A program made the translations under genes and the position numbers. Shown in pieces: positions 7,237 to 14,000 of a DNA stretch of 64,000 nt. Below the pieces are notes generated by a model. It saw only the letters and a program-made list of their open reading frames with translations, was not told where the DNA came from and made no database searches. The DNA lies in the NCBI RefSeq assembly GCF_001027285.1, contig NZ_CP011509.1:9634501-9698500 (forward strand). The letters are read 5' to 3'. The first letter of the stretch is position 1. Every line of letters starts with the position of its first letter. The stretch comes from Archangium gephyra. Lineage in GTDB: Bacteria > Myxococcota > Myxococcia > Myxococcales > Myxococcaceae.

Positions 7237-7433
7237 GAAGAACTCCTCTGAAGTAGAGGTGACTTTCTTGACATACATGTTGGTTGCGCTTCAAGGCGTT
7301 GTGATGATTTACACGATTTTTTCTGATTGAGTTGTGTAAACGCTGACGAGTGGCCACTTGGTTGTTCACCGATGAAGTGGCACGGTGCGCGGTTTTTCTT
7401 TTTCTGAGAAAAGAGAGCCAATTGGGCACCGCC

Positions 7434-8732
7434 ATGAAGCTCACGAAGCTCCACATCCATGGGTATCGGGACATCGCGCCGGGCACGGGGCTGGTGTTCA
7501 GTCCGGCGCTCAACCTGGTGCTCGGAGAGAACGGCACCGGCAGGACGACGCTGCTGGAGCTGATCTCGCGCGTGCTCGCCTCGGACTTCTCCGGGCTCAT
7601 CCGCGAGGAGTTCTCGTTGGAGTACGCCCTCTCCTTCCCCGGGATGGAGCTCCACGTCACCGTGCGCAACACGCGGGCCACGGGCGCGTCCCGGCCGGCC
7701 GTCACCGCGCGCGAGGAGTCGGCGCTGCTGCTGCCACGTCCTCCGGAGGCCGCCCCGGGGCTCGAGCCCTTCATGGAGCTGGTGCTCGAGCTGGATGCGC
7801 CCGGCCCCCGGCTGGTGATGCGCGCCGACGCCACGGGCGTGGCCTGGGAGGTGGACGGGCAGCCCGCCTATTCACAGACCATGTACTGGTCGCTGTTGGA
7901 CCGGACCGTCTGGGTGGTGCTCTTCATGACGGCCCAGCGGCTGGAGCCCGAGGTCCGCGAGCCGCTCAAGGAGCTGCTGCGCCGCACCTTCCTGCTCGCC
8001 CCCGCGCGCTTCGACGAGGGGCTGGGGACGTTCCAGCAGATTGGCAATACACAGTATGGAATGGAGATGCGGGGCGACGAGGTCTTCCCGCTCGGGTTGA
8101 TGTGGCTGCCCGCGTGGATGCCCGGGCTGTTGCGTGAGCGGGTGGCGCGCGAGATGCCTCCGCCCGCCGGCCATCTCGACATCCGCCACGACGAGGTGGA
8201 GCGCGGCTTCCTGGCGAGGTTCGTCTCCCTGGCTGGCTTCAGCGCGGGAACGTTCCGGGTGGAGCTGCTGGACAAGCGCAGCTACGAGGGCGGCGGGCGG
8301 CTGGAGTTCGGCCGCTTCGGCTTCCGCTTCACCCGGCGCGACGGCGCGGTGCTGACGCAGGAGCAGCTCGGCCATGGACAGAAGCGGCTGCTGTCCTTCC
8401 TGTACTACCTGGACGTCAACGAGGACTTCGTCATCGCCGACGAGCTGGCCAACAGCCTGCACCCGCGCCACGTGGAGGCCTGTGTGAGGGAGCTGGGCCG
8501 CCGGCAGTCCTTCCTCACCAGCCAGAATCCGCTGCTCTTCGAGCACATCCCGCTCGGCTCCGCGGAGGAGGCCCGCGCCTCGCTGCTCCACTGTGGGACG
8601 GAGCTGCGGGACGGCCGCGAGTGGAAGGTGTGCACCAACCCGTCACCGGAGACGGCCGCGAAGCTCTTCGGCGCGTACCAGCGGGGAGACACCCCGCTCG
8701 CGACGCTGCTGCGCACTCACGGGTTGTGGTGA
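7434..8732 (+). CDS. AAA family ATPase (SMC/RecF-like)
   Basis: The protein is 432 aa. The ATG is chosen because MKLTKLHIHGYRDI is the usual first strand of SMC/RecF-type ATPases; an earlier in-frame start (7350) lies in AT-rich promoter-like sequence. Walker A is GENGTGRTT, with Arg instead of the usual Lys-Ser neighbour pattern. The signature region is LGHGQKRLLSFLYYL and Walker B is FVIADELANSLHPR. No TOPRIM or nuclease domain is attached. Such single-domain AAA proteins occur alone or with a partner nuclease. The tail-to-tail neighbour, an AlkB homolog on the other strand, overlaps its last 16 bases. The role is unknown; DNA repair or element defence are guesses. Confidence 0.75.
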   Translation: MKLTKLHIHGYRDIAPGTGLVFSPALNLVLGENGTGRTTLLELISRVLASDFSGLIREEFSLEYALSFPGMELHVTVRNTRATGASRPAVTAREESALLLPRPPEAAPGLEPFMELVLELDAPGPRLVMRADATGVAWEVDGQPAYSQTMYWSLLDRTVWVVLFMTAQRLEPEVREPLKELLRRTFLLAPARFDEGLGTFQQIGNTQYGMEMRGDEVFPLGLMWLPAWMPGLLRERVAREMPPPAGHLDIRHDEVERGFLARFVSLAGFSAGTFRVELLDKRSYEGGGRLEFGRFGFRFTRRDGAVLTQEQLGHGQKRLLSFLYYLDVNEDFVIADELANSLHPRHVEACVRELGRRQSFLTSQNPLLFEHIPLGSAEEARASLLHCGTELRDGREWKVCTNPSPETAAKLFGAYQRGDTPLATLLRTHGLW

Positions 8733-9610
8733 GGCTCGGGGGCCTGGCGCTCCCGCGCGAGCTCCGCCCGGAAGAAGGCGCTGTGGCTGGCGAGCGTCTC
8801 CATGTAGGGCCGCACGTCCTCGCGGGCCTCGGGTGAGAGCCGCGCGTAGGGAATCACGTGCTCGTCCGGCACGTAGCGGAAGGTGAGGTTGATGCGCCGG
8901 GTCTTGAAGTCCGGCAGCGCGGGGGCGAGCTCGTGGCCGGCGCGCGTGTCCACCCGCTGCACCCGGTGGAACGTCTGGTCCTTCCAGCGCGCCCCTCCGA
9001 AGAGCTGGAGCGAGCCATCGTCGAGCCACTGCTCCAGCACCACCTCGTCGCGCTCGCCCGGGCGGCTGGAGGTGACGAACTGGATGAGGGCGCGCTCGCC
9101 GAAGGACAGCGAGGCCACGGGCCCCGGCTCGAAGTCCTTGTGCTCACCCACGCGCGCGGTGTCCACCCAGCGCCCGTCCTCGAGGCGGCTGCCGTAGAAG
9201 TTCACCAGGCAGGTGTTGAGGTGCCAGCGGGGCGGCATGTCCGGCCCCCGGAACATCCGGCGCGCCAGCTGCTCCACCTTGTCCACCTGGCGCTGGAGCA
9301 CCGCCGGGAAGGGCTCGGCCTTGACGCAGCGGTCCTTCACGCCCTTGGGCGGCCGGTAGTAGTCGAGGCAGGCGAACTGCCAGTTGCCCAGCCAGTACAC
9401 CGGCCGCAACAGCCGCCGCTGCTCCTGCCCCGGCGGCGGGGGGAAATGCTTGGAGTAGCGCTGCTCCCACAGGGGGTGGAGGGCTCCGAGCCACGCGAGG
9501 ATCTCCGCGCGGTCCGCCGCCGGGAGGAAGCTCGCGTTGTAGTGGTGGCCCGGAGTGCGCTGGCGGGCCTTGTGGGCCAACGAACGGCCATAACGGGGAG
9601 GAGGCGCCAT
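8717..9610 (-). CDS. AlkB-like 2-oxoglutarate/Fe(II) dioxygenase
   Basis: The protein is 297 aa. The AlkB double-stranded beta-helix core shows CLVNFYG (N-x-Y), the iron motif GEHKDFE (H-x-D), a later TFHRVQR His, and TRRINLTFRY, which matches the R-x-N-x-T-x-R 2-oxoglutarate/substrate motif. Members demethylate alkylated nucleic acid bases or act on proteins. The N-terminal 120 residues (HYNASF, RPVYWLGNWQF, CLDYYRPPKG) are a typical extension of ALKBH-like bacterial proteins. It is convergent with the AAA ATPase gene, sharing 16 bases. Its distance from the upstream caspase gene (33 bases) shows it could be the last gene of the sigma-factor operon. Confidence 0.82.
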   Translation of the reverse strand: MAPPPRYGRSLAHKARQRTPGHHYNASFLPAADRAEILAWLGALHPLWEQRYSKHFPPPPGQEQRRLLRPVYWLGNWQFACLDYYRPPKGVKDRCVKAEPFPAVLQRQVDKVEQLARRMFRGPDMPPRWHLNTCLVNFYGSRLEDGRWVDTARVGEHKDFEPGPVASLSFGERALIQFVTSSRPGERDEVVLEQWLDDGSLQLFGGARWKDQTFHRVQRVDTRAGHELAPALPDFKTRRINLTFRYVPDEHVIPYARLSPEAREDVRPYMETLASHSAFFRAELARERQAPEPHHNP

Positions 9611-9643
9611 GGGAGTCCCTCCCCTACCACGGCTCCGCCCGGC

Positions 9644-11461
9644 TCAGAAGGTGGCGAGCACGCCCGCTCCGAGGGAGAACGACATGGCGTCCATCAGCGG
9701 GAACAACGCGGAGGCGTTGCCCGTGAGGCTCCAGACATCGTTGAGGTGGATGGACAGGAGCGGGAAGGGGGACCCCACCCCACCGCCAACGCGCAGCCCC
9801 ACGTGGACATTCGTCCTCGACGTGTAGGTGCCATCCCCGACGGGCACGACACCGTCTGAGAAGTAGGCCATGGCCCCGACACCGAGTCCCAACGTCACCA
9901 CCTCGCCCAGCGTCACGGAGTAACCCACCTCCGCCGTGGGCGAGGGGTAGAGCCTGAGCTCCAGCGGGTATCCCTCGGGCGTGGTGGGGGGGGTGATGAA
10001 GACCGTGTAGGCGGCCGACAGCTCCGCGTGCACGCTGCTGGAGTCCGACAACCACCACCGCGTCCGCAGGCCCGCGTTCAGATGGACCGCATCGAACGAG
10101 GTGGGGAGCGTCGCACCCGCGAAGGGCACCCACTCGGAGCGGCCCGCCTCACCCAGGCGGTAGGAGAGCGTCGGCGAGGGAATCCCCGTGAACACCCGCT
10201 GCGGGCGGGTGAGCTTCACCGAGGGCAACCCTCCCACGGTCAGCTGGAGCCGATCGGTCAATCCCACGCGGTAGCCAGCCACCAGGGCGGGGGGACTGGC
10301 GTAGGTGATGGGGGGTGAGGCCTCGTTGTACTCCGAATACCCCGCGGAGACCCCCAGGCTCACCGCGTGGGTACCGGCCGGGAGGGTGGTGAGGGTGGCG
10401 GCCAGCGGCCGCGAGTAGCGCTTGGCGGCGAGCCCCGGCGCCCCCACCAGCTCCAGGTTCTCCTCGTGCACCGTCACCGTCTTGCCGGCCTCCACCTGGA
10501 GCTCCCGGGCGAACGTCCCCTGGGGCGTCCTGCGGCGCACCAGATAGGGCCCCACCGGCAGGGCCATGCGCAGGGCCCGCCGGCCCTCGGGCACCTCCAG
10601 CACCACCAGTCCGGAGTGCAGCTGGATGACCTGCAAGGGCCCCAGCTCCTGCCGCACCTCGAGCGTGCTGCTCGCGCTGGCCAGCCGGGTGAGGGGCAGG
10701 TCCTGCCGCCCGCGCAGCCGCAGGTCGAAGCTCGGGTGCTGCACCGCCTCGCCATGCAGCGAGGTGTCGCGGATGGTGAGGCGCTGGGCATAGGCGAAGG
10801 CCTCGCCCACCGTCACCTGTCCGTCGTCGCCCTCGTCCGCCGCGCCACGCAGGCCCGCCACCAGGTGATGGGTGAAGAAGGAGCCCTGGAGCGCATCCGT
10901 CTCGTGTGAGGCCTCCTGTCCCGTGCTGGAGGCGAGCAGCACCGAGCCCTCGCTGGACAGGCCCAGCGGCACCTCCAGGGCGAAGGGCGCCGCCGGGGTG
11001 AGCCCCTTGGCCCGTGTCCAGCTTCCCCCCTGGCAGGCGTCGAGGATGCCCACGCGCACCGCGGCCCGGGCGTCCTCCAGCCGCACCCGGAGCTCCTTCA
11101 GCTCCAGGGGCTGGCCGTTGGGATAGAGCGCACGCTCGTCCGAGTGGCCCGAGTAGTAGAAGAGCAGCAGTCCCTCCCGGCCCTCCTTCCCGAGCCGCTC
11201 CAGCCGGGAGTCCAACGTCGCGAGGACGCGCGAGGGCTCCGGGTCCTCCAGCACCACGACATCCTCCCGGGCGAACTGTCCGGCCTCGACGAGGACGGAG
11301 GCGAGGTTGCGCGCGTCCTGGTGCGCATACCGCAGGGGCGTGCGTCCGGGAGCGGCGCGGTTGGAGCCCACCACCACGGCCAGGCGCTTCACGCGCGGAG
11401 AGCCGGTGTCGGGCGGAGCGGCGGTGAGGGCAACGAGGGTCAGGGCGAGAAGTGCGTTCAT
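9644..11461 (-). CDS. exported caspase-fold protease with C-terminal beta-barrel
   Basis: The protein is 605 aa. The ATG overlaps the stop of the anti-sigma gene (ATGA), which fixes the start. A signal peptide (MNALLALTLVALTAAP) is followed by a peptidase C14 caspase domain, about residues 22-250, with catalytic H106 (YYSGHSDE) and C143 (DACQGG). Next is a PEGA-like segment (about 290-370: EVPEGRRALRMALPVGPYLV). The last ~220 residues are alternating strands ending in the sequence SLGAGVLATF with a terminal Phe, as in outer-membrane barrels. The layout predicts a caspase held in the periplasm by an outer-membrane barrel. It is the third gene of a translationally coupled sigma / anti-sigma / caspase operon. 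Confidence 0.85.
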   Translation of the reverse strand: MNALLALTLVALTAAPPDTGSPRVKRLAVVVGSNRAAPGRTPLRYAHQDARNLASVLVEAGQFAREDVVVLEDPEPSRVLATLDSRLERLGKEGREGLLLFYYSGHSDERALYPNGQPLELKELRVRLEDARAAVRVGILDACQGGSWTRAKGLTPAAPFALEVPLGLSSEGSVLLASSTGQEASHETDALQGSFFTHHLVAGLRGAADEGDDGQVTVGEAFAYAQRLTIRDTSLHGEAVQHPSFDLRLRGRQDLPLTRLASASSTLEVRQELGPLQVIQLHSGLVVLEVPEGRRALRMALPVGPYLVRRRTPQGTFARELQVEAGKTVTVHEENLELVGAPGLAAKRYSRPLAATLTTLPAGTHAVSLGVSAGYSEYNEASPPITYASPPALVAGYRVGLTDRLQLTVGGLPSVKLTRPQRVFTGIPSPTLSYRLGEAGRSEWVPFAGATLPTSFDAVHLNAGLRTRWWLSDSSSVHAELSAAYTVFITPPTTPEGYPLELRLYPSPTAEVGYSVTLGEVVTLGLGVGAMAYFSDGVVPVGDGTYTSRTNVHVGLRVGGGVGSPFPLLSIHLNDVWSLTGNASALFPLMDAMSFSLGAGVLATF

Positions 11462-12150
11462 GGCGAAGGGGGCTGCGAAGAAGGTTTGGAGAGGGTGAGC
11501 GGGAGGACCCACAGCGACTCGGTGCGCGAGGGCTCCTCGTGGAGCGGGGCCAGGGACCGGGCGGGGACGGGCGAGTGGCTGAGGACGACGAGGAGCCGCT
11601 CGGGCTGCTCGCCGGGCTCCACCCGCCAACTGCTGGGCAGGAGGGTCTCGCCGCGCTCGGGCACCGGGCCCTCATGCAGCACCTGCCAGGCGTCGCCGTC
11701 GGCCGCGGCCACGGTGAGCCAGGTGAAGCCCTCGGGCATGACCTTGAGGCGCAGCAGGTCTCCCTCGGCCACCGGGGACTCGCCGTCCCACAGCCGCACC
11801 GCGTCCCCGGTCTTCACGTAGAGGGCCACGGCCGGGCTGCCCTTGCTGCGCAGGCCGGCCATCGGGTCCGGGAGCGTCTCCGTGGCACGAGGCACCCACA
11901 GCACCAGCGCGAGCCCCGCCGCGAGCGCCGCGACGCCCCAGGGCGCCAGGCGGGCCAGGAGCGAGGGAGCGCGGCGAGGCGGCTCGTTGGCGAGTGCCAC
12001 GGCCCAGGACGGCACCGGTGGCGGCAGGCCCAGGGCGTCGACATGCCCGGCACAGCGGGGGCAGGAGGCCAGGTGGGCCCGCACCTCCTCCGTCATGTCC
12101 CCGAGCGCGGCGCGATCCAGCGCCAGGAAGGAAGGGTGGGAGAGGCTCAT
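11458..12150 (-). CDS. zinc-finger anti-sigma factor with DUF4384-like outer domain
   Basis: The protein is 230 aa. H26-x3-C30-x2-C33 is the ZAS zinc-binding motif that holds a partner ECF sigma factor. A single membrane helix (LAPWGVAALAAGLALVLWV) follows a Pro-rich linker. The remaining ~130 residues should lie in the periplasm and look like the DUF4384 domain that often accompanies caspases (GDLLRLKVMPEG, LLPSSWRVEPGEQPERLLVV). Its start codon overlaps the sigma-factor stop and its stop overlaps the caspase start, so the three are made in fixed ratio. It presumably releases the sigma factor on a periplasmic signal. Zinc finger and membrane topology are seen; partner identity is inferred from coupling. 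Confidence 0.82.
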   Translation of the reverse strand: MSLSHPSFLALDRAALGDMTEEVRAHLASCPRCAGHVDALGLPPPVPSWAVALANEPPRRAPSLLARLAPWGVAALAAGLALVLWVPRATETLPDPMAGLRSKGSPAVALYVKTGDAVRLWDGESPVAEGDLLRLKVMPEGFTWLTVAAADGDAWQVLHEGPVPERGETLLPSSWRVEPGEQPERLLVVLSHSPVPARSLAPLHEEPSRTESLWVLPLTLSKPSSQPPSP

Positions 12151-12701
12151 CGTTCCTCCTCGCGCCAGGGCCCCAGCCGCGCCTCGAGGCGGGTGAGGAT
12201 GCGGCGCACGGTGCGATCCGACAGGCTGGTGACTTCGCCGATTTCGGGCTGGGTGAGGCCGTCCAGCCGGTGCAGCAGCGCCACCTCGAGCTCCTCGGCG
12301 GGGAGGCTCGAGGCCAGGGACTGGAGGCGCTGGCGCACCTGCAGGACGGACTCGATGCTGGGCGCGGGGTGGGCGGTGGTGTCCTGCAGGGCGGCGGACA
12401 TCTCCACGGGCTGGCGGCGCTGACGGACCCGCAGCCGGTCGATGAGCAGCCGGGTGCTCACCCGGTAGAGCCAGGGCACCACCTCGCGTCCGGGGCGCTG
12501 GGCCATGCCGGAGCGCCACAGGCGGATGAAGGACTCCTGGGCCACCTCCTCCGCCTCCGCCGCGTCACCGAGGGCGCGGGCACACTTGCGCTGGAGCAGG
12601 GGGAAGTATTGGCGGTACGCGGCCGTGACGGTGGCCGACGCACCCTCACGTGGGGGCGCGCTCATGGTGGGCAGTAGGAGGCATGAGGTTTCCTGGAGCA
12701 T
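12147..12701 (-). CDS. ECF-family RNA polymerase sigma factor
   Basis: The protein is 184 aa from the first ATG; a second in-frame ATG at 12665 (MSAPPREG) is equally possible because neither has a clear ribosome site. Region 2 (YRQYFPLLQRKCARAL, EVAQESFIRLWRS, VVPWLYRVSTRLLIDRLR) and region 4 (LEVALLHRLDGLTQPEIGEVTSLSDRTVRRILTR) are complete. It is the first gene of the operon and likely drives its own transcription as well as other targets. The stop codon overlaps the anti-sigma start as ATGA. Confidence 0.9.
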   Translation of the reverse strand: MLQETSCLLLPTMSAPPREGASATVTAAYRQYFPLLQRKCARALGDAAEAEEVAQESFIRLWRSGMAQRPGREVVPWLYRVSTRLLIDRLRVRQRRQPVEMSAALQDTTAHPAPSIESVLQVRQRLQSLASSLPAEELEVALLHRLDGLTQPEIGEVTSLSDRTVRRILTRLEARLGPWREEER

Positions 12702-12743
12702 TCACCCGTACAACGAAATGCCCCGGAAAAAGCGGACACGGCC

Positions 12744-13175
12744 TCACGGCCCGGGCGGGCGGCTCGGGCGGCTGAGCACGTACGTGGCCCCCACGAGGAT
12801 GAGCAGCCCGGCCGCCGCGAGCACGTACCACTTCATCCGCAGGACGAAGGCCAGCAAGCCGAAGCTGATGGCCATCGCGGACACCGCACTCACCTTCACC
12901 GGCACTGGCACGGTGCCGTGCTCATCCCACTCCTGGAGCCGGGGCCCGAAACGGGGGTGGGTATACAGCCAGTGGTGGAAGCGGCGGGAGCTGCGCGAGA
13001 ACGCCCACAGCGCGACGAGCAGGAAGGGCGTCGTCGGCAGCACCGGCAGGAACGCGCCCAGCATCCCGAGTCCGACACAGACGAACCCGAGTGCCATGAA
13101 GGCGTACCGGAAGCGGGAGGTCTGCGCCTCGCCGGTGCCCGGCTGCCCCTGCTCCCTGGACGGTTCCCCCGGCAT
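12744..13175 (-). CDS. DUF454 / YbaN-family inner membrane protein
   Basis: The protein is 143 aa. The family hallmark GLGMLGAFLPVLPTTPFLLVALWAFSRSS is followed by RFHHWLYTHPRFGPRLQEW and two closely spaced hydrophobic segments near the C-terminus, giving three to four membrane helices. The hydrophilic first 20 residues are unremarkable. YbaN-type proteins have no settled function. It is transcribed divergently from the MBL-fold hydrolase gene, with 63 bases between the start codons. Confidence 0.82.
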   Translation of the reverse strand: MPGEPSREQGQPGTGEAQTSRFRYAFMALGFVCVGLGMLGAFLPVLPTTPFLLVALWAFSRSSRRFHHWLYTHPRFGPRLQEWDEHGTVPVPVKVSAVSAMAISFGLLAFVLRMKWYVLAAAGLLILVGATYVLSRPSRPPGP

Positions 13176-13238
13176 GGCCGCGACTTATAGCACTCTGGGG
13201 TACTGTTCCACCGGCCCCAGAGGCCGCTCGAGGTGACG

Positions 13239-14000
13239 ATGAAGCGCGTGTTGAAGATCGCCGGTCTGGTCCTGCTGGTCCCCGTGTTGGGGGTGGTGGC
13301 GCTGTTCGTGGCCATGTTCGCTGGCAACCCGGAGATTCCCGATGGCCAGGAGCTGGAGGGCTTCGCCCGGGTGGTGAAGGACGGCTATGTCAGCCTGGAC
13401 GTGCTCGACGCCGGGGAGGGCGCGGTGGTGCTCATCGACTCGGGCACGGACCCCGAGGGGAAGATCCTCCTGGCGGAGCTGAAGCGGCGCGGCCTCGGGC
13501 CGGACGCGGTGAAGGCCATCCTCCTCACGCACGGGCACGCGGACCACATCGCCGGGTGCCACCTCTTCCCCAAGGCCGAGGTGCTGGCGCTCGAGGCGGA
13601 CGTGCCCATCGCCGAGGGGAAGGCGCGCAGCGACAGCCCCATCCTCCGGCACCTGCCTCCCGCGGACCGGAAGGTGCGCGTCACCCGCGCGCTGAAGGAC
13701 GGCGAGACGCTCCAGGTGGGCAACCTGTCCATCCGCGTCTTCTCCATCCCCGGGCATACCCAGGGCAGCGCGGCGTACCTCGTCAACGGGTTGCTCTTCC
13801 TGGGCGACAGCGCGGACGCGAAGAAGGACGGCAGGCTCGTGGGCGCCAAGTGGCCCGTGACGGAGAGCGTGGAGCAGAACCGCGCGTCGCTGAAGGCGCT
13901 GGCGGCGAAGCTGAAGCCCGAGGAGGTGAAGCAGCTCGTCTTCTCGCATACCGGGGTGCTGCCCGGATTCGCACCGCTCCGCGACTTCGCGGCGAACTGA
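13239..14000 (+). CDS. MBL-fold metallo-hydrolase, membrane-anchored
   Basis: The protein is 253 aa. The ATG is preferred because the in-frame GTG six bases earlier is part of its GAGGTG ribosome site. An N-terminal hydrophobic segment (residues ~7-28) anchors or exports it. The metal site is HGHADHIAGC (H-x-H-x-D-H), with the further ligands GHTQGS, LGDSAD and SHTG in the expected order, so a two-metal hydrolase is likely. The substrate cannot be told from sequence; glyoxalase II, lactonase or a lipid hydrolase are options. The next gene starts 9 bases after its stop, suggesting a two-gene operon. Confidence 0.85.
   Translation: MKRVLKIAGLVLLVPVLGVVALFVAMFAGNPEIPDGQELEGFARVVKDGYVSLDVLDAGEGAVVLIDSGTDPEGKILLAELKRRGLGPDAVKAILLTHGHADHIAGCHLFPKAEVLALEADVPIAEGKARSDSPILRHLPPADRKVRVTRALKDGETLQVGNLSIRVFSIPGHTQGSAAYLVNGLLFLGDSADAKKDGRLVGAKWPVTESVEQNRASLKALAAKLKPEEVKQLVFSHTGVLPGFAPLRDFAAN

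What the first reader, a model, noticed from the sequence alone, without database searches (positions are those of the whole stretch)
9644..12701. Translationally coupled ECF sigma / anti-sigma / exported caspase operon
Three genes are joined by two ATGA stop-start overlaps. The anti-sigma factor has a ZAS motif (H26, C30, C33) and a DUF4384-like outer part. The last protein has a signal peptide, an intact caspase dyad (H106, C143), a PEGA-like segment and a C-terminal ~220-residue strand-rich part ending in Phe. The layout suggests that a periplasmic signal, perhaps proteolysis by the caspase itself, frees the sigma factor. A caspase joined to an outer-membrane barrel under its own sigma factor is not a described system that I know.
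Basis: partly seen in the sequence, partly recalled or inferred. Interest (0 to 1): 0.8.

Follow-up and report, generated by a model that had tools for sequence, protein, structure and literature searches.

The report
Surface caspase that may switch genes
In myxobacteria a caspase-like protease with a predicted outer-membrane barrel is encoded with a sigma factor and its membrane inhibitor, and matching conserved Lys-Gly (or Arg-Gly) sites in protease and inhibitor suggest that the protease cuts itself loose and then cuts the inhibitor to turn genes on.

Summary
The three genes, both ATGA overlaps, the zinc motif, the caspase dyad and a predicted C-terminal outer-membrane-type barrel are confirmed. 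It is not a one-off: in 101 Myxococcota loci, 83 of 102 caspase ORFs have a same-strand ECF sigma gene within 1.5 kb upstream, and 95 of 101 loci hold a related anti-sigma. A 2012 survey (PMC3501461) already reported sigma-70 genes in myxobacterial metacaspase operons, so the linkage is not new. What I did not find in print is a likely mechanism. The anti-sigma has one near-invariant basic residue, K103-G104, just outside the membrane (KG in 91 of 95, RG in 2). The caspase has the same motif 9 residues after its catalytic Cys (KG 95, RG 3 of 101) and before the barrel (KG 78, RG 9 of 101). In an R-type clade both the first caspase site and the anti-sigma site are R-G (30 of 30 loci). Anti-sigmas without a nearby caspase lack the KG (0 of 25). 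Best reading: an outer-membrane-tethered caspase activates and frees itself, then cuts the anti-sigma as site-1 protease. No cleavage was shown; this is inference from sequence and models.

The parts
12147..12701 (-). ECF sigma factor, 184 aa (start may instead be the ATG at 12665, M13)
   Evidence: (Sigma70_r2 5.5e-14, r4_2 8e-8)
11458..12150 (-). membrane-anchored anti-sigma factor, 230 aa: HxxxCxxC domain 8-41, TM about 68-85, disordered linker 87-101, outer beta-sandwich 107-220
11839..11844 (-). codons of K103-G104 of the anti-sigma: predicted site-1 cleavage site
   Evidence: place computed from the start at 12150
9644..11461 (-). caspase-family protease, 605 aa: hydrophobic N-terminus, caspase domain about 25-263 (H106, C143), strand-rich part about 256-340, predicted barrel 365-604, last residue Phe
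11003..11008 (-). codons of K152-G153: predicted self-activation site, 9 residues after C143 and 5 before the disordered loop 157-166
   Evidence: place computed from the start at 11461
10418..10423 (-). codons of K347-R348: predicted release site inside the disordered linker 344-350 before the barrel (K-R in this copy; KG in 78 and RG in 9 of 101)
   Evidence: place computed from the start at 11461
9650..10369 (-). predicted outer-membrane-type beta-barrel of about 12 strands (residues 365-604)
12711..12737 (-). conserved block just upstream of sigma, kept in a relocated copy with unrelated flanks; candidate promoter of the operon
   Evidence: (only match in the genome with up to 3 mismatches)

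Best explanation
This is an envelope signalling operon. (1) The ECF sigma factor is held by a membrane-anchored anti-sigma factor [families shown; binding inferred]. (2) The caspase is exported and its C-terminal barrel sits in the outer membrane, with the protease in the periplasm as a zymogen [sequence and model; location inferred]. (3) On an unknown signal, perhaps through the barrel, the caspase cuts itself after K152, near where animal caspases are cut between large and small subunits, and after K347, which frees it from the barrel [inferred from conserved K/R-G motifs at the model's two disordered stretches]. (4) The freed caspase cuts the anti-sigma after K103, just outside the membrane, removing the outer sandwich domain [inferred from the shared motif and its K/R pairing]. 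(5) An ordinary site-2 protease would finish the anti-sigma, and sigma would transcribe its own operon from the conserved block at 12711-12737 [inferred; not tested].
For: Linkage: 83 of 102 caspase ORFs have a same-strand ECF gene within 1.5 kb upstream; 95 of 101 loci hold a family anti-sigma by a profile built from 57 of them. In this genome 11 of 12 strong anti-sigma matches (E <= 4.4e-10) lie with a caspase, one of them about 3.5 kb away, and 11 of 12 caspases have one. Motif: K103 is the only column with K+R >=85% in 57 anti-sigmas; 64 caspases have four, R26, R136, K152 and K347. Wider counts: anti-sigma KG 91, RG 2, KD 1, SG 1 of 95; caspase site 152 KG 95, RG 3 of 101; site 347 KG 78, RG 9 of 101, basic residue in 98. 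Pairing of residue 152 with the anti-sigma motif: K/KG 91, R/RG 2, K/KD 1, K/shifted 1, none crossed. R-type clade, the 30 best loci: caspase R-G 30 of 30, anti-sigma R-G 30 of 30. Position: pLDDT under 50 only at 157-166 and 344-350 (caspase) and 87-101 (anti-sigma). Controls: KG in 0 of 25 zinc-type anti-sigmas without a caspase in the stretch held, within 45 residues after the TM, against 63 of 66 linked ones. Three caspases without a sigma pair (L060, L298, L299) lack KG at site 152. Chemistry: caspase homologs outside animals cut after R or K (PMC5756287 abstract and passages); best structural match is Arabidopsis metacaspase 4, Z 22.6; Asp two before the Cys in 100 of 101. Movable unit: in L063 only the three genes and about 50 bp upstream are kept.
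Against: No cleavage, localisation or expression data. The K/R difference probably reflects one old split between clades, so it may be a single event. Three caspases with no family anti-sigma on the stretch held (L104, L119, L137) still have KG at 152 and at 347, so the caspase motifs do not need a nearby anti-sigma. L076 (R-G) and L101 also lack one; L101 ends at a contig end. One anti-sigma with KG has no caspase in the 10 kb examined (L294). Site 347 is weaker: R 20, K 8, Q 2 in the R-type clade and mostly acidic at that column in the short L058 type; R at 347 occurs with K at 152 and in the anti-sigma; here it is K-R. The review says that bacterial orthocaspases lack p10 and that type I metacaspases are not self-cut between p20 and p10 (PMC5756287 passages), so the likeness of K152 to a subunit cut is not assured. 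KG could be a fold feature at the start of the sandwich domain. Some relatives seem to have no barrel (L051, L058). The 101 loci were chosen by similarity to this caspase, not at random.
Confidence: 0.66

Rival explanations
1. The caspase is only an output: sigma and anti-sigma regulate an exported caspase that acts on envelope, prey or self, and signal sensing is by the anti-sigma or another protease.
For: A gene behind a sigma pair is often a regulated target (general knowledge). The 2012 paper suggested metacaspases as possible lytic enzymes in Myxococcus development (PMC3501461, passages). Some caspases keep the motifs without a nearby anti-sigma (L104, L119, L137).
Against: Does not explain why the one near-invariant basic residue of the anti-sigma matches the caspase's own motif and is R-G where that is R-G, nor its absence in anti-sigmas without a nearby caspase.
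Confidence: 0.17
2. The anti-sigma K-G site is a docking or pseudosubstrate site: the anti-sigma sandwich holds the caspase inactive rather than being cut.
For: A shared motif fits binding as well as cleavage. DUF4384 is fused to some caspase-family proteins elsewhere, in an alphaproteobacterial pseudo-orthocaspase clade (PMC6426788 passage).
Against: The site lies two residues past a disordered juxtamembrane linker, a usual kind of place for a cut (the last point is general knowledge).
Confidence: 0.09
3. A different Lys/Arg-specific periplasmic protease cuts both anti-sigma and caspase.
For: The data show a shared site, not who cuts it.
Against: R-G pairs and K-G pairs occur in the same genome (G000: L059 beside K-type loci), so one shared third protease would have to serve both and would give no reason for the pairing.
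Confidence: 0.05
4. K-G is only a structural start motif of the outer domain, and K152/K347 are unrelated fold features.
For: G104 and G153 are near-invariant, as structural glycines can be. One anti-sigma keeps KG without a nearby caspase, and L104, L119, L137 keep KG without a nearby anti-sigma.
Against: K and R agree at both places in every pair counted; the three motifs lie at or beside the three disordered stretches.
Confidence: 0.03

Closest known systems
sigma-70/metacaspase operons of Asplund-Samuelsson et al. 2012 (PMC3501461; section 13 read in full, other passages; figures and supplements not seen)
   Same: Same gene association: 4 of 5 M. xanthus metacaspases in operons with sigma-70; also Anaeromyxobacter, Haliangium, Sorangium, Ralstonia, Fibrobacter.
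   Different: That section names neither an anti-sigma nor a barrel for these operons, and no cut site or mechanism; possible signal peptides are mentioned elsewhere for metacaspases in general.
CRISPR-associated Csx29-Csx30-CASP-sigma (PMC10028731, passages read)
   Same: A caspase-family (CHAT) protease cuts a sigma inhibitor and relieves inhibition of an ECF sigma factor.
   Different: Activated by Cas7-11 and target RNA, TPR-CHAT protease; the passages mention no export, barrel, zinc-type membrane anti-sigma or Lys/Arg-Gly site.
EACC2-caspase loci with ECF sigma and DUF1822 (PMC8195603, passages read)
   Same: Caspase with variable C-terminal domains, often near an ECF sigma gene; caspase self-activation proposed.
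   Different: EACC2 constant domain before the caspase and a DUF1822 TPR partner; no membrane anti-sigma in the passages.
DegS/RseA/RseP and TonB-transducer cell-surface signalling (PMC11637429 passages; DegS/RseA from PMC10028731 passages and general knowledge)
   Same: An envelope event leads to stepwise proteolysis of a membrane anti-sigma and release of an ECF sigma.
   Different: [quoted passage not shown] here it would be a caspase tied to an outer-membrane barrel and encoded in the same operon.
Group ECF54 with CHAT genes (PMC8999054, passage read)
   Same: Caspase-like domains in ECF sigma neighbourhoods.
   Different: Described as controlled by proteolysis without an anti-sigma.

Membership tests
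ECF sigma with class I anti-sigma | sigma2 and sigma4 domains | tested here: met
ECF sigma with class I anti-sigma | helical domain (often Hx3Cx2C) plus a TM in the partner | tested here: met
   zf-HC2 22.0 bits against 22.2 by hmmscan, 24.6 bits and over the cut-off in the genome search; helices 8-41 and TM helix 72-85 in the model. Some linked relatives lack the zinc motif
ECF sigma with class I anti-sigma | anti-sigma binds and inhibits sigma | not testable with these tools
   -
Caspase homolog, peptidase family C14 (orthocaspase) | C14 domain with His-Cys dyad | tested here: met
   (101 of 101)
Caspase homolog, peptidase family C14 (orthocaspase) | cleavage after Arg or Lys | not testable with these tools
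   Asp at 141 in 100 of 101 fits a basic-residue pocket; its role in the pocket is recalled
Outer-membrane beta-barrel protein | closed transmembrane barrel | tested here: inconclusive
   predicted model with about 12 long strands that matches solved outer-membrane barrels; closure was not measured
Outer-membrane beta-barrel protein | signal peptide and terminal aromatic residue | tested here: inconclusive
   C-terminal Phe present; signal peptide judged by hydropathy only
Proteolytically released sigma system (site-1/site-2) | site-1 cleavage in the juxtamembrane outer segment | tested here: inconclusive
   candidate site K103-G104 conserved; cleavage not tested
Csx29/Csx30/CASP-sigma | Cas7-11 and other CRISPR genes in the locus | tested here: not met
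   none among the seven proteins scanned from 7350-14000
EACC2-caspase-ECF-DUF1822 | DUF1822 partner gene | tested here: not met
   not among the seven proteins scanned
EACC2-caspase-ECF-DUF1822 | EACC2 domain before the caspase | not tested
   no model was searched for; the caspase domain begins at about residue 25, which leaves little room
EACC1-associated caspase (NF047832) | score over the NCBIfam cut-off | tested here: not met
   70.6 bits against 140
TonB-dependent signal transducer | plug/STN domain and TonB-receptor barrel | tested here: not met
   no such Pfam hit in P0001 at E<=1
DUF4384 | Pfam match of the outer anti-sigma domain | tested here: inconclusive
   no match in P0002; 23 of 57 family members match, best 5.3e-8

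The most novel reading that the evidence does not exclude
A widespread envelope-to-nucleoid signalling system of Myxococcota, present in many parallel copies per genome, in which an outer-membrane-barrel-tethered caspase zymogen self-activates, severs itself from the barrel and, as a dedicated site-1 protease with matched Lys-Gly or Arg-Gly specificity, cuts the membrane anti-sigma of its own operon: a caspase used as a messenger between two membranes rather than as a death enzyme.
Probability: 0.5. Interest if true: 0.9.

Novelty: new variant of a known kind. Interest (0 to 1): 0.78.

Why it matters
Myxobacteria hold many caspase genes whose role is unknown. Predicted cut sites in both protease and inhibitor make their job directly testable with single point mutants. 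If right, it gives a non-death function for a large bacterial caspase family, a co-encoded site-1 protease for ECF sigma release, and a way for an outer-membrane protein to reach the inner membrane by cutting itself free. K-type and R-type pairs in one genome might be a natural set of insulated signalling lines.

Tried and rejected
Flanking genes as part of the system (DUF454 upstream, AlkB-like 2OG oxygenase and ATPase downstream): kept in two close Archangium loci (L061, L062) but not found around the relocated copy L063, so rejected. A genome-wide regulon from the upstream block: the pattern with up to 3 mismatches occurs only here, so no other target is proposed; looser promoters were not searched. 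Structural identity of the anti-sigma outer domain: Foldseek's best E was 2.5e-3, to sandwich folds. Named genomes: the protein scan of genome contigs returned three loci, two of them Archangium (A. lansinium, A. violaceum). Plasmid search: two distant caspases without a sigma gene listed nearby, used as outgroups; that gene table is incomplete. A first reading of the R-type sites by regular expression failed on most rows and was replaced by alignment. The strain of the window was not identified; the genus rests on the same-genus label and matching contig lengths. Literature: nine searches of an open-licence library; that the mechanism is not in print means only that they did not show it. The large ECF reclassification paper was not among the rows listed. 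Searches were mostly off-topic.

Rows dropped before counts and selection: alignment A1 used 57 of 67 zinc-type linked anti-sigmas, A2 used 64 of 102 caspases, both picked by me. In one search, of 47 loci scanned (30, 17 of this genome), 25 were counted; dropped were L243 (same place as L158), L165 (tail too short), L174 (the anti-sigma about 3.5 kb from the L058 caspase; has R-G and E-K-G), and 19 without both a zinc motif and a TM call. 'No caspase' there means none in the stretch held. RG occurred at scattered places in 5 of the 25. Of 67 linked anti-sigmas one (L072) had no TM call. In one search the partial ORF at L102:6494-6900 was left out (101 of 102). Start codons were chosen partly by closeness to the sigma stop, so its 56 of 67 four-base overlaps are biased upward. 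The profile was built from A1, whose members lie in these loci.
Full report
OBSERVATION. The three minus-strand genes are as described: sigma 12147-12701, anti-sigma 11458-12150, caspase 9644-11461, with ATGA overlaps at both joints. Pfam finds sigma70 r2 and r4_2, a zf-HC2 match of 22.0 bits (cut-off 22.2) and Peptidase_C14 at 3.9e-10; it finds no PEGA and no DUF4384 in these three proteins at E<=1. NCBIfam's EACC1-type caspase model scores 70.6 against its cut-off of 140.

THE GENOME AND ITS PARALOGS. The window lies in a single-contig 12.49 Mb genome. The genome has 12 places with a relative of this caspase and 69 ECF sigma matches. Nine of the 12 caspases have an ECF gene within 3 kb; about 0.4 would be expected by position alone (my estimate). 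A profile of the anti-sigmas finds 12 strong matches (E <= 4.4e-10) in the genome; 11 lie with a caspase, one of them (L058's) about 3.5 kb away, and one, at 7,954,791, has none in 10 kb. Of the 12 caspases only L060, whose domain starts near residue 7 so that no signal peptide fits, has no such anti-sigma.

PHYLUM-WIDE LINKAGE. A relative of the caspase occurs in 163 of 195 Myxococcota genomes searched. I used 101 loci: the window, 11 own paralogs, 29 of the best hits and 60 further listed hits. They hold 102 caspase ORFs, one of them partial: 83 have a same-strand ECF gene within 1.5 kb upstream, 8 have one elsewhere on the strand within 3 kb, 2 on the other strand, 9 none, two of these at a contig edge. 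By profile, 95 of 101 loci hold a family anti-sigma; the profile was built from 57 anti-sigmas of these same loci. The loci were chosen by similarity to this caspase and are not a random sample. Other orders exist: caspase first, then sigma and anti-sigma, in some with another ORF between (L051, L055, L098, L107, L110, L113, L127), and divergent copies (L142, L297). In L063 the three genes sit among other neighbours, with about 50 bp upstream of sigma still conserved. That block occurs once in the window's genome with up to 3 mismatches allowed.

STRUCTURE. The caspase model (64-row alignment) has mean pLDDT 86. Its first part matches metacaspase 4 of Arabidopsis best (Z 22.6, rmsd 2.6, 209 residues), and outer-membrane barrels are among the best whole-model matches (FapF 5o68 E 1.5e-7; 4rl8 6.4e-7); I assign these to the last 240 residues, where I count about 12 long strands. 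Closure was not measured, and that part was not folded alone. The only segments under pLDDT 50 are 157-166 and 344-350. The anti-sigma model (57 rows) has the helical domain, a membrane helix, one segment under pLDDT 50 at 87-101, and a beta-sandwich without a PDB match at E <= 0.001. DUF4384 matches 23 of 57 family members. Five DUF4384 matches at E <= 0.05 in this genome (three over the cut-off) all lie beside caspases.

THE SHARED SITE. Among 57 anti-sigmas the only column with K+R >=85% is K103 (55 K, 1 R), followed by G in 56. Among 64 caspases there are four such columns: R26, R136, K152 (62 K, 2 R; G153 invariant) and K347 (60 K, 4 R). Over all loci the anti-sigma motif is KG 91, RG 2, KD 1, SG 1 (a shifted KSG) of 95. 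The caspase site 152 is KG 95, RG 3, KA 1, KS 1, VA 1 of 101, and site 347 is KG 78, RG 9, other pairs 14 of 101, with a basic first residue in 98. K152 lies 9 residues after the catalytic Cys; animal caspases 3 and 7 are cut about 12 residues after theirs (recalled). K152 is five residues before one disordered stretch, K347 lies in the other, and K103 is two residues past the anti-sigma's disordered linker. In this very copy site 347 is K-R.

PAIRING AND CONTROLS. In a separate clade (L059 and relatives, the 30 best loci) the site-152 motif is R-G in 30 of 30 and the anti-sigma motif R-G in 30 of 30; site 347 there is R 20, K 8, Q 2. The shorter L058-type caspases also have R-G at site 152 in the 30 best loci (30 of 30), but mostly an acidic residue at the 347 column; their anti-sigma has R-G in the three genomes checked. 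No counted locus pairs K with RG or R with KG. These R-types are related, so the change may have happened once. Zinc-type anti-sigmas with a TM but no caspase in the stretch held have no KG within 45 residues after the TM in 25 of 25, against KG in 63 of 66 linked ones; many of the 25 are orthologs of a few families, and RG occurs in 5. Three caspases without a sigma pair (own L060, Runella L298, Nostoc L299) lack KG at the 152 position. Against this, L104, L119 and L137, which have no family anti-sigma on the stretch held, do have KG at 152 and 347; partners elsewhere in those genomes were not searched.

LITERATURE. Caspase homologs outside animals prefer Arg or Lys before the cut, and for the bacterial MaOC1 self-cleavage was needed for activity; the same review says that orthocaspases lack p10 and that type I metacaspases are not cut between p20 and p10 (PMC5756287, abstract and passages). 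A CHAT protease that cuts a sigma inhibitor is shown for Csx29-Csx30 (PMC10028731, passages). ECF genes beside EACC2-caspase genes are described in PMC8195603 (passages). Sigma-70 genes in metacaspase operons of Myxococcus and others were reported in 2012 (PMC3501461, section 13). My nine searches (open-licence papers only) showed no paper that joins these with a membrane anti-sigma, a barrel or a cut site.

MECHANISM. The most economical reading is that the caspase cuts itself (K152 for activation, K347 for release) and then the anti-sigma at K103. The release step would solve the geometry problem, that a barrel-bound protease must reach the inner membrane. Shown by computation: gene linkage, motif conservation, K/R pairing, predicted folds. 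Inferred: export, outer-membrane placement, every cleavage, site-2 proteolysis, autoregulation, and the signal, which is unknown. Main weaknesses: one probable switch event, weaker conservation at 347, relatives that seem to lack barrels, a KG anti-sigma without a nearby caspase and KG caspases without a nearby anti-sigma, and no experiment.

VERDICT. I rate it a new variant of a known kind (proteolytic ECF sigma control), with the bold reading of a barrel-tethered caspase as a two-membrane messenger at probability 0.5.

Noticed in passing
L175:1429-3372 (G000:C1:12352428-12354371): Caspase, a K-G site, a TPR-like region (by eye) and an ECF sigma region lie in one open frame, followed by an anti-sigma with YVAKGG; either a fusion or an internal start for sigma.
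   Followed up: partly
L294 (G000:C1:7949000-7959000): A sigma and family anti-sigma pair with TRTKG but no caspase found in the 10 kb; an ORF with TPR-like repeats (by eye) follows. Possibly served by a caspase elsewhere.
   Followed up: partly
L053 / L295: Caspase and family anti-sigma with TRVKG but no sigma gene recognised nearby.
   Followed up: no
L104, L119, L137: Exported-looking caspases with both KG sites but no sigma or family anti-sigma on the stretch held.
   Followed up: no
window 7350-8732 (+) and 8717-9610 (-): ATPase gene (AAA_15/AAA_21 matches) overlapping, tail to tail, an AlkB-like 2OG-Fe(II) oxygenase gene.
   Followed up: no
G000 genome: All five DUF4384 matches at E <= 0.05 in the genome are in anti-sigmas beside caspases.
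   Followed up: yes
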